A stretch of DNA of 64,000 nucleotides, from the NCBI GenBank assembly GCA_022447225.1, contig JAKVAZ010000008.1, forward strand, positions 322,643 to 386,642. The letters are read 5' to 3'. The stretch comes from Fuerstiella sp. GTDB taxonomy: Bacteria > Planctomycetota > Planctomycetia > Planctomycetales > Planctomycetaceae. Position numbers and translations under genes: made by a program. Shown here piece after piece: positions 61,420 to 63,512 of this stretch. The notes under the pieces were generated by a model. That model was not told the DNA's origin, made no database searches, and was given only the letters and a program-made list of their open reading frames with translations. Numbering within the stretch: position 1 is the stretch's first letter; the number at the start of each line of letters is the position of its first letter.

Positions 61420-61805
61420 TTAAACAATCATGAAAGTGGCTGTGACGTCAGTGATCAGATCTCCACCGTTCTGAACTCGAACTTCACCGCTGGAGTCAAC
61501 GAAAAACATTCGTTAACTTTCGATTGATCTGAACAGTTTGTCCCACATACAGCGAACGATGGTAACGCAGTGCAGGTGGTCACGGCTTTCCTGTTCCGCA
61601 GATCCAGGACACTGGACATCACGGCGTCAAGTGCCGTGAAGACGATGCCTCCATGGATAACATTGTCGTAACCGAAAGATTCTGAGTGCCCGTGAATGCA
61701 GCCTGACGCCGGCATCCAGTGAAAACTGCAGTGCAGACCGGCGGGATTGTCCGGACCACATCCGAAACACATCGGTGCCTTTTCAGTCTGACTGTCGCCG
61801 ATCAC
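61420..61805 (-). pseudogene. Hotdog-fold (PaaI-like) thioesterase with two apparent frameshifts
   Basis: The frame from GTG 61805 starts normally for the family: CFGCGPDNPAGLH (about residues 13-25) and VIHGGIVFTALDAVMSSVLD with its catalytic-type Asp. Near 61566-61580 the family sequence moves one frame on, to RYHRSLYVGQTVQINRKLTN, and near 61493-61500, beside a run of five T, it moves one more, to DSSGEVRVQNGGDLITDVTA and a stop at 61420. Without the shifts the frame ends at 61455 with unrelated sequence. Two indels in one short gene mean decay or sequencing error. The intact product would hydrolyse an acyl-CoA thioester in the cytosol. Confidence 0.75.
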
Positions 61806-61889: not shown

Positions 61890-63188
61890 CTATTCCCACC
61901 CATATGACCTGAAATACAGCGGCGGGATCTGTTCGGCGGGAGTCTTTCCTGCCAGCTTGAGAACAATTCCCATCGGCGCTGGGCCAAAATCCCGCTCATT
62001 CAAACGACCGTTGTAGGCGTTCCCGCCCCATCGCGACGACAGCGCCACCAGATCAAATGAAACAAACATCTCTGTCATCAGATCGAATACCGCCTGGCCC
62101 TCAAGCTCAGCATCGACCCCGCGTTTCTGAAGTTTCGGAATTCCCGGTCCCGGATGGTTCCATTTCCCTTCAATATGGACACCGTCGTGAACTTCGGACG
62201 TCCGCGTCCGGCCCCGGAAATGCAGCGACACCAGGTTTCCTTTCACATTGATCACCTCAGTCAGTAACTCCGCGTGTTCCACAGCTTTTTTGGGAAAGGA
62301 CTTCGTATGACCCCGGACCAGATCGACAAAATGGAAACAGGCCAGTCTTTCCACAATATCGCGGGGAACCTCGTGCTTTAACCCTTTAGTCGGATGCTTT
62401 GGCACAAAAGCCTGCGCTTCATCGTTGCGAAACCACACATAGTCCAGATTGTACGCGTCCCTGTCGGGCGACGTATCCGGTGCCACTTTGCGGGGCAGGT
62501 CTCGACAGATTGAACTCAACACCAGACCATCGTAAGGATACTGACTTTTCCCTTCAGCACTGTCTCGCTCAGCGATGGCTTCGACAAACTCGTCGCTGCT
62601 CAAAAACTTCTCGTCTGCCGAAAGTTTTTCCCATTTCTCCAGACCCTGGCGTATGTGTTCTTCAACTTTCCGAGGGTCATGAATCGCTTCATGCGAACCG
62701 GACAACAGCAACCCGTTGGGCGTCGCCACAAAGACACCCTGCATGGACACTGAATCGTTACTCTGCTTCTTGATTTTTTGCATGAGGCGGCTTTCGAAGC
62801 TGGTTCCAACCCCCAGATACTTTCCCGGGCGTTCGATCTGGTCGGCTGTGGGAATCAGCAACGTAGACAAATCCTGCAACGTGGAGTCGGTCCAGACTAA
62901 CTGCCTGGAACTAACACCATTGCCTCATGTGCAGCCAAGCGGATGACCGTTCATCAGGACGATCATCACAGGCTTATCATTGTTCTGAGCATCCACGATG
63001 CCCTGCAGAACGGATGTGCGCCATGCAATCCTGCAATAGGACTGCTCACTCGAATCGGAAATGACCTGCGTGCGGCATTGCGAGTGTTCGGCAGACAATA
63101 GCGGCAGCGGATTGCTGTCATCGCTACGACCGATGTTTGTCCCGTACAACAGGGTGATCGCGATGATTCCGGACACAAGGTTCTTCAT
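61890..63188 (-). CDS. Exported thioredoxin-like protein with in-frame TGA, candidate selenoprotein
   Basis: From ATG 63188 (GGAG six bases upstream) one frame runs to 61890, 432 codons, interrupted only by TGA at 62925-62927 (codon 88). A signal peptide (about 1-22) is followed by a thioredoxin-like strand KPVMIVLMNGHPLGCT; Cys86-Thr87-TGA88 then sits where thioredoxins carry their CxxC motif. After the TGA the sequence resumes as GNGVSSRQLVW and keeps good coding character for 344 more residues, with no further stop. A hairpin fit for a bacterial SECIS lies downstream of the TGA. Selenocysteine at 88 (CxU) is my favoured reading; a nonsense mutation or base error (for example TGC to TGA) is the alternative. 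The 5' part alone would end at residue 87. Confidence 0.6.
62891..62909 (-). promoter_or_regulatory. Hairpin after the in-frame TGA, SECIS candidate
   Basis: On the minus strand, TCCAG (62909-62905) pairs with CTGGA (62895-62891) around the 9-base loop GCAGTTAGT. The loop begins with G and starts 20 bases after the TGA. An irregular lower stem (GG/CC, G-C, U-A, G-C pairs with mismatches) can extend it. This meets the usual loose rules for bacterial SECIS elements (loop 16-37 bases after UGA, G among its first two bases). Confidence 0.4.
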
Positions 63189-63512
63189 AAATGTCTCCAT
63201 GCTGTTATTTGAACGGCAGTCTGCCTGATGAAGTCATTGTATTGTATCATTGCAATGACGCTTTCAGTAATCGGGATGGGGAATGATTCCGGTTGAACCA
63301 CGACTCCAGGTTGGATGTTGATACTGCAGTATTTTCGAATGGACTGTGTTTTCGAATGGACTGTGTTTTTTGACTCCACGGACCCGGTAAAAATCAAACC
63401 CGCCTTCGATCTTCTGTTTGCAGAGCGTGACACTGTTCCCCATACTTATTGTAGATTACGATGGGAGCAATACGGTTCGGCAGAAGACAGGAAAAAATCG
63501 GAGGCGCAGGTG
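63189..63512. other. Intergenic stretch with a short tandem repeat
   Basis: Region between the divergent thioredoxin-like and Gfo/Idh/MocA genes; it holds a 17-base perfect tandem duplication at 63332-63365 and no gene. Confidence 0.5.
63332..63365. repeat. 17-bp perfect tandem duplication
   Basis: TTTTCGAATGGACTGTG occurs twice in direct succession (63332-63348 and 63349-63365) and is followed by a T run. It contains the palindrome TTCGAA. It may be polymerase slippage or a paired binding site upstream of one of the flanking genes. Confidence 0.75.

What the first reader, a model, noticed from the sequence alone, without database searches (positions are those of the whole stretch)
61890..63188. 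Candidate selenoprotein: thioredoxin-like gene read through a TGA in a CxU motif, with a SECIS-like hairpin
A single frame on the minus strand runs from a good start (63188) to 61890 and is broken only by TGA at 62925-62927. The TGA follows Cys86-Thr87, at the place where a thioredoxin fold has its redox motif, and coding quality continues unchanged on both sides. A 5-bp hairpin with a 9-nt loop beginning with G starts 15 bases after the TGA (loop at 20 bases). These features together fit a bacterial selenocysteine gene. Against it: one base change would also explain it, and the adjacent thioesterase gene carries two indels. No Sec machinery is in the window.
Basis: partly seen in the sequence, partly recalled or inferred. 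Interest (0 to 1): 0.82.

Follow-up and report, generated by a model that had tools for sequence, protein, structure and literature searches.

The report
Sec-only thioredoxin-fold selenoprotein family
The in-frame TGA is very probably a genuine selenocysteine codon in a secreted thioredoxin-fold protein, one copy of a widespread and apparently unnamed bacterial family in which selenium, never cysteine, was found at this site.

Summary
The frame 63188-61890 (-) is broken only by TGA at codon 88. The same genome carries tRNA-Sec (UCA anticodon), selA, selB and selD, and two more copies of the gene, both with TGA at that codon. In 15 of 15 homologues from relatives that reach the site it is TGA; in a capped genome-collection scan with TGN free at the site, 81 of 81. 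Eight other homologues have Ser, Asp or Pro; none seen has Cys. The hairpin after the TGA (7 bp, loop AGUUA, 22 nt) fits the bacterial SECIS model. Over 154 windows such hairpins exceed synonymous-codon shuffles at the TGA, but (one marginal exception) not at 13 control positions. dN/dS is 0.11-0.40 on both sides. The model shows a thioredoxin fold plus a beta domain without a convincing relative. No Pfam or NCBIfam model covers the family, and I cannot recognise it in the 2026 catalogue of 119 prokaryotic selenoprotein families. Selenium incorporation and activity remain untested. Best reading: an exported, selenocysteine-dependent oxidoreductase; a new selenoprotein family, unusual in lacking Cys homologues.

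The parts
61890..63188 (-). selenoprotein gene, 432 residues read through TGA; stop TAG 61892-61890
62925..62927 (-). TGA, selenocysteine codon 88 (motif HPLGC-T-U-G-N-G-V)
   Evidence: TGA in 81 of 81 pattern matches and in 93 distinct rows of the homologue alignment (8 rows Ser/Asp/Pro)
62891..62909 (-). SECIS-type hairpin UCCAGGC-AGUUA-GUCUGGA; apical loop 62902-62898
63195..63198 (-). GGAG, likely ribosome binding site
   Evidence: read; inference
63123..63188 (-). hydrophobic N-terminal stretch, probable signal peptide (residues 1-22)
   Evidence: read; low confidence in the model; inference, no signal-peptide program run
62613..63053 (-). thioredoxin-fold domain (residues 46-192), Sec88 two residues before helix 90-98
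61893..62543 (-). C-terminal beta domain (residues 216-432), no convincing structural relative

Best explanation
The gene encodes an exported selenoprotein. When a ribosome reaches UGA codon 88, the hairpin just downstream recruits SelB with Sec-tRNA (UCA anticodon), and selenocysteine is inserted instead of termination (inferred from sequence, machinery and conservation). The mature protein (about 410 residues) has an N-terminal thioredoxin fold whose one constant redox residue is Sec88. By the model and by spacing, Sec88 sits where the first cysteine of a CxxC lies, at the start of the helix (inferred). I propose that the selenolate attacks a disulfide or peroxide substrate outside the cytoplasm, and that Cys86 (CxU), where present, resolves the intermediate as a Se-S bond; members without a nearby Cys would need an outside thiol. 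The C-terminal beta domain would bind the substrate or a partner (guess). Sec decoding is near certain; oxidoreductase activity is likely; the substrate is unknown. The stated confidence is for Sec decoding; for the oxidoreductase part I would say 0.7.
For: Machinery in the same genome: tRNA-Sec 70.8 bits, ARAGORN anticodon tca; selA 508.3, selB 314.5, selD 227.2 bits, each over the curated cut-off, in one cluster. Of 59 relatives, 28 have tRNA-Sec over 60 bits, and so do 9 of the 9 with the family (hypergeometric p 5.5e-4). Of 60 further TGA-carrying family genomes that I picked, 58 have it at 59.9 bits or more; of 21 named genomes with the gene, 17 labelled as other groups than Planctomycetota, 17 have it at 58.6 or more. 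SECIS-type hairpin: mean -6.64 against -3.25 kcal/mol for synonymous shuffles over 154 distinct windows (p 4e-22, not corrected for relatedness), differences of -0.85 to +0.21 at 13 other positions. dN/dS 0.15-0.40 before and 0.11-0.30 after the TGA in six pairs. TGA ends 15 of 31 long mechanical ORFs of the window, so it is not reassigned. Fold: Z 11.9 to 3f9u (DsbD-like), 11.8 to 1sen (TXNDC12); Foldseek E 4.8e-4 to 3f9u.
Against: No protein, selenium or activity data. The 57-nt fold is not unusual by dinucleotide shuffling. Only 63 of 154 windows reach -7.5 kcal/mol with an unbroken stem, and covariation in the hairpin class of this gene is modest (3 of 7 pairs with double changes, in a group chosen for having the hairpin). 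Family genomes without a tRNA-Sec of at least 58 bits: 2 of 60 (their best are 53.2 and 49.0) and 4 of 21. Two of the 81 scan matches have frames that stop within 110 codons after the TGA away from a contig end (L169, L179). Eight homologues have Ser, Asp or Pro at the site. A thioredoxin cis-Pro seems to be replaced by an invariant Gln150-Gly151. Cys86 is not conserved in divergent members. hhalign puts Sec88 on the second Cys of a related family, against helix position and spacing.
Confidence: 0.93

Rival explanations
1. Pseudogene or sequencing error: the TGA is a recent nonsense mutation or a miscalled base in an otherwise ordinary gene.
For: One base change would give Cys or Trp; the thioesterase-like gene next door looks broken.
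Against: TGA at the same codon in two other copies in the genome and in 13 of 13 aligned sequences (the three own copies included), in 81 of 81 pattern matches including complete chromosomes; purifying selection on both sides.
Confidence: 0.01
2. TGA is read as another residue (Trp or Gly) by a reassigned code or by plain stop-codon readthrough, not as selenocysteine.
For: Either would also conserve an open frame.
Against: TGA ends 15 of 31 long ORFs in the window; family presence goes with tRNA-Sec; SECIS-type hairpins are in excess at the TGA and not at control positions.
Confidence: 0.02
3. The UGA is a regulated terminator: mostly a short secreted 87-residue product is made, and the read-through selenoprotein is a minor or selenium-sensing form.
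For: Bacterial Sec insertion is often incomplete (own knowledge); nothing here measures efficiency.
Against: The truncated product would end before the active-site helix and lack most of the fold; selection is about as strong after the TGA as before it.
Confidence: 0.04
4. A selenoprotein, but not an oxidoreductase: Sec88 binds a metal or a selenium/arsenic species, or the protein is a carrier.
For: Cys86 is not conserved in divergent members (CU, HTU, ATU, VVU, YVU), the CxxC pattern is missing, and the review PMC13188914 reports predicted metal binding for part of the selenoprotein families (section 7 read).
Against: Thioredoxin fold with the Sec at the helix start; Asn90, Arg95 and Gln150 invariant in 46 members look like a catalytic site; inference.
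Confidence: 0.2

Closest known systems
VPGUxxT family thioredoxin-like (seleno)protein, type 2 (NCBIfam NF041383; OS_HP5 in PMC13188914 table 1)
   Same: Thioredoxin-like domain with Sec before the helix; occurs in the same phylum (19 of 149 genomes at E 1e-10, 13 over the cut-off); homologous by profile comparison (hhalign probability 95.9, E 6e-9 over residues 51-184).
   Different: Motif VPGUxTC, no HPLGCTU loop, 287 positions; has Cys forms (L237, L245). Members of the present family reach only E 0.0015 (4 of 46); the curated cut-off is 275 bits.
Trx7/PDZ domain-containing (seleno)protein (NCBIfam NF041199)
   Same: Thioredoxin_7-like selenoprotein common in the phylum (43 of 149 genomes over the cut-off).
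   Different: Motif VPUxPC and a PDZ domain by its name; 1 of 13 members here matches, at E 0.11; no PDZ family in the Pfam scan at E up to 1.
Thioredoxin-like selenoprotein Sec.1 (PF13192, CxU; PMC13188914 table 1)
   Same: CxU motif and thioredoxin-like fold.
   Different: No PF13192 match at E up to 1 in 13 members.
DsbD C-terminal domain / TXNDC12 / AGR thioredoxin folds (PDB 3f9u, 1vrs, 1sen, 3ph9)
   Same: Same fold for residues 46-192 (Z 8.4-11.9).
   Different: CxxC-type site in DsbD and TXNDC12 (recalled); here CxU with an extended loop and an extra C-terminal beta domain.
Glycine reductase selenoprotein A (GrdA)
   Same: A selenoprotein family stated in 2006 to have no known Cys homologues (PMC1794560, passages seen).
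   Different: Another protein and process; no sequence comparison made.

Membership tests
Bacterial selenoprotein genes | in-frame TGA conserved at one place among homologues | tested here: met
   15 of 15 among relatives; 81 of 81 in the collection scan; 8 homologues with Ser/Asp/Pro
Bacterial selenoprotein genes | SECIS-type hairpin 16-37 nt after the TGA with G in the first two loop positions, at most -7.5 kcal/mol (model as in PMC13188914, section 5) | tested here: met
   22 nt, AGUUA, 7 bp, -9.2 kcal/mol in the window gene; family-wide excess over synonymous shuffles. Only 63 of 154 windows reach -7.5
Bacterial selenoprotein genes | SelA, SelB, SelD and tRNA-Sec in the genome | tested here: met
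Bacterial selenoprotein genes | selenocysteine in the protein | not testable with these tools
   needs mass spectrometry or 75Se
Thioredoxin-fold proteins | thioredoxin fold | tested here: met
   AlphaFold2 model pLDDT 87.3, Z 11.9 and 11.8; Foldseek E 4.8e-4
Thioredoxin-fold proteins | CxxC or Sec equivalent, and cis-Pro opposite (recalled) | tested here: inconclusive
   CxU instead of CxxC, CxxU in L004; Gln150-Gly151 invariant where I would expect the Pro; no residue-level superposition made
NF041383 VPGUxxT type 2 | curated score of 275 bits | tested here: not met
   best E 0.0015, 4 of 46 members; 2 of 13 at best E 0.0023
NF041199 Trx7/PDZ | curated score of 300 bits | tested here: not met
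   1 of 13 members, E 0.11; none of 46 at E 0.01
Thioredoxin-like selenoprotein Sec.1 (PF13192) | match to PF13192 | tested here: not met
   no match at E up to 1 in 13 members
Thioredoxin_7 (PF13899) / Thioredox_DsbH (PF03190) | Pfam gathering score | tested here: inconclusive
   3 of 13 members each, best E 0.021 and 0.0009; cut-offs not shown in that table; no match for the window protein itself

The most novel reading that the evidence does not exclude
An obligate selenocysteine enzyme family: its chemistry cannot be done by cysteine, so when selenocysteine is given up the site turns into Ser, Asp or Pro (loss of function or a new function), never Cys. This would be a large counter-example to the usual Sec/Cys exchange, and it would explain why searches built on Sec/Cys pairs did not report it.
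Probability: 0.4. Interest if true: 0.82.

Novelty: new member of a known kind. Interest (0 to 1): 0.68.

Why it matters
Gene callers that treat TGA as a stop would cut such genes in two (own knowledge; I did not see the deposited annotation of these loci). The family is common (117 of 392 sampled genomes of the phylum have a match, some of them partial or weak), often in several copies, and I cannot recognise it in the catalogue of 119 prokaryotic selenoprotein families. The makers of deep-Sep write that their method may miss selenoproteins without Cys homologues (PMC12013277, passages seen); this would be such a case. A Sec-only thioredoxin-fold enzyme would allow a direct test of what selenium can do that sulfur cannot, and it is a candidate reason why these bacteria keep the Sec system.

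Tried and rejected
Rejected: sequencing error or pseudogene (other TGA copies, complete chromosomes, dN/dS); reassigned genetic code (TGA ends 15 of 31 long ORFs); identity with hypothetical proteins GOS_A/B/C (these have 155, 125 and 312 Cys homologues in PMC2398784, passages seen).

Led nowhere: a look for conserved neighbours in 80 loci of up to 8 kb gave no operon partner; the two largest clusters appear to be antisense ORFs over the gene itself. The C-terminal domain has no convincing structural relative (Foldseek none at E 0.001; best Z 6.5, outer-membrane barrels). No match on plasmids at E 1e-5. Literature searches for this family; nothing in the titles or starts of abstracts shown described it, and searches returned no paper. 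The Porphyra planctomycete paper (PMC4807772; section 17 read, other passages seen) lists its selenoprotein candidates in a supplement I could not open, so it may hold members of this family. PMC5029168 and PMC9312934 were only searched for terms.

Left out of counts: the phylum search prints a capped list of matches; I checked the codon only in the loci returned by the tools plus 60 that I fetched (the printed stop-free matches that seemed to span the site, plus a choice of others), not in every match. One search examined 106 of 118 loci (12 machinery loci left out) and has 108 rows: 94 TGA (one place, L010/L029, twice), 4 without the site, 2 misaligned (L073, L074: TGA one or two codons away), 8 with Ser (6), Asp (1) or Pro (1). 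For alignment A2 I used 45 of the 69 sequences listed, plus the window protein; for A3 45 of those 46; for the covariation count 36 of the 38 sequences of that hairpin class (L016 and L069 dropped as divergent). For one search I chose 67 genomes and for 22 of the 80 named loci (21 genomes).

Full report
Observation. On the minus strand one frame runs from ATG 63188 to TAG 61890 and is interrupted once, by TGA at codon 88 directly after Cys86-Thr87. The 344 codons after the TGA would be open by chance with probability about 5e-7 for one given place. This fits the bacterial SECIS model as printed in the 2026 review PMC13188914 (section 5 read): loop of 3-9 nt, stem of 4-16 bp, G in the first two loop positions, spacing 16-37 nt, at most -7.5 kcal/mol.

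Machinery. The window lies in contig C8 of a 5.43-Mb genome of Planctomycetota (inferred: G428, told as the same phylum, has a contig of 4,954,743 bases, the length of CP036290.1, Planctomycetes bacterium Pla163). That genome has tRNA-Sec at C8:279294-279385, 70.8 bits against a gathering score of 47, and ARAGORN calls it tRNA-SeC with anticodon tca. selB, selA and selD score 314.5, 508.3 and 227.2 bits, each over the curated cut-off, and lie in one cluster: selB, selA and a 752-residue ORF whose second half is SelD (its first half looks like an NADH dehydrogenase, named from recall).

Family and codon 88. A search of 59 relatives with the read-through protein gave 16 places in 9 genomes, three of them in this genome. 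In 15 the frame reaches the site, and it is TGA in all 15 (in L015 and L016 the site lies upstream of the matched part); L013 does not reach it. In the alignment of 13 the motif (N/D)G(H/N)PLGCTU(G/N)NGV is nearly invariant; L004 has PLCNTU (CxxU). A profile search of 392 genomes of the phylum matched 117; its profile carried C at the site, so it did not disfavour Cys forms. I read the site in the loci that I held: 108 rows, of which 94 are TGA (93 distinct), 8 are Ser, Asp or Pro, 2 are misaligned with TGA one or two codons away, 4 do not reach the site; none is TGC or TGT. In 2 of the 81 (L169, L179) the frame stops 106 and 88 codons after the TGA without reaching a contig end. Record titles include Planctomycetota, Verrucomicrobiota groups, Fimbriimonadales, Chthonomonas, Chloroflexi, Actinomycetota and Marinimicrobia, nearly all metagenome bins, plus two complete chromosomes (CP036290, CP036526).

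Selenocysteine machinery across the family. tRNA-Sec over 60 bits is present in 28 of 59 relatives and in 9 of the 9 with the family (p 5.5e-4); 19 relatives have it without the family. I used about 59 bits and not the gathering score, because other tRNAs pass the latter (5 of 14 control genomes are over it). In 60 further family genomes with TGA, picked by me from the strong matches, it is at or above 59.9 bits in 58; the two others, G337 (53.2 bits) and G329 (49.0), are 81 and 87% complete. Of 21 named genomes, 17 have it at or above 58.6 bits. The four without are the genomes of L129, L179, L188 and L192; the last two are bins called Marinimicrobia and may hold misplaced contigs.

Forms without selenocysteine. 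Three genomes of one family (f17: G227, G153, G344; 86, 86 and 61% complete) have Ser, Ser and Pro at the site, and their best tRNA-Sec matches have E-values of 9.6e-7 to 2.0e-6, weaker than in the other 64 genomes of that call. G357 and G417 have Ser although they have tRNA-Sec. G166, G223 and G215 have both a TGA copy and a Ser or Asp copy. So each form without Sec that I saw has Ser, Asp or Pro; the direction of change was not tested with a tree. By contrast, the related VPGUxxT family has Cys forms in the same phylum (L237, L245).

SECIS test. For 154 distinct windows of 60 nt after the TGA (from 172 genes) I took the best hairpin of the SECIS type and compared it with synonymous-codon shuffles: mean -6.64 against -3.25 kcal/mol, p 4e-22; at 13 other in-frame offsets of the same genes the difference is between -0.85 and +0.21, and only one offset (+130) has p below 0.05, uncorrected. 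The p values ignore relatedness. Best loops start at 18 nt (66 windows, mostly CGUGN), 19 nt (26), 21-23 nt (44, the class of this gene) and elsewhere. Only 63 of 154 reach -7.5 kcal/mol with an unbroken stem. In 36 aligned windows of this class 83.3% of cells pair, 3 of 7 pairs show double changes, and the covariation score is reached by 1 of 500 shuffles, but the number of further pair types is not unusual (194 of 500); these windows were chosen for having the hairpin, so the pairing percentage is partly circular.

Selection. dN/dS is 0.15-0.40 before the TGA and 0.11-0.30 after it in six pairs among this gene, its paralogues and near homologues; in a seventh pair (L011/L012) it is 0.13 after the TGA and synonymous change is saturated before it.

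Structure and mechanism. The AlphaFold2 model (46 sequences, pLDDT 87.3, pTM 0.86) has a thioredoxin fold at residues 46-192: best Z 11.9 to 3f9u (DsbD-like) and 11.8 to 1sen (TXNDC12), Foldseek E 4.8e-4, the only match at or below 0.001. Sec88 lies two residues before the helix 90-98, as the first Cys of CxxC does in thioredoxin (recalled), and its spacing of 12 residues to the following Thr equals that of the Sec in a VPGU protein (counted). hhalign aligns it instead with the second Cys of VPGUxTC; this is unresolved. In 46 members Gly81, His82, Pro83, Cys86, Thr87, Sec88, Asn90, Gly91, Arg95, Gln150 and Gly151 are invariant, but 45 of these were fetched with a pattern that demands most of the motif. 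In the wider set Cys86 is replaced or moved (CU, HTU, ATU, VVU, YVU), so the Sec is the one constant redox residue. The N-terminus is hydrophobic like a signal peptide (by eye). From this I infer an exported Sec-dependent oxidoreductase, with Cys86 as an optional resolving thiol. The substrate is unknown.

What is known. No Pfam or NCBIfam family covers the protein. In table 1 of PMC13188914 (119 families; whole section 7 read) I find no entry that fits; the CxU entries are other proteins, and the term planctomyc does not occur in its main text. For entries without a model or motif I can judge only by name. GrdA is an older case of a selenoprotein without known Cys homologues (PMC1794560, passages). 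That the family is not in print rests on the searches listed under Tried and rejected, in an open-access library without bioRxiv, and no supplements could be opened.

Noticed in passing
window 61420-61805 (-): Thioesterase-like gene (named by eye) next to the selenoprotein gene, apparently broken by frame changes; its largest piece has no match in the 20 other genomes searched.
   Followed up: partly
L271 1671-7300 (+), own genome C1: Sec gene cluster selB, selA and a 752-residue ORF that fuses an NADH dehydrogenase-like part with SelD.
   Followed up: partly
L119 3-6741: In a Rhodopirellula bin the family gene lies convergent to and right beside ORFs that look like selB, selA and the SelD fusion (named by likeness to L271). 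Clusters with the selA- and selB-like ORFs hold 3 of 80 loci, that with the fusion 4.
   Followed up: partly
L060 and L076 (G166 C37); L059 and L081 (G215 C321): A Sec copy and a Ser or Asp copy of the family lie near each other on one contig.
   Followed up: partly
L015, L016, L069, L072, L075, L115, L116, L117: Divergent members with other Sec contexts (Cys directly before the Sec and others), which suggest a larger superfamily.
   Followed up: no
L236, L242, L248: Members of the VPGUxxT family with a second in-frame TGA (xMxUxW context), possibly a second selenocysteine.
   Followed up: no
L188, L192: Contigs with the family gene in Marinimicrobia bins without a clear tRNA-Sec; possibly misplaced contigs.
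   Followed up: no
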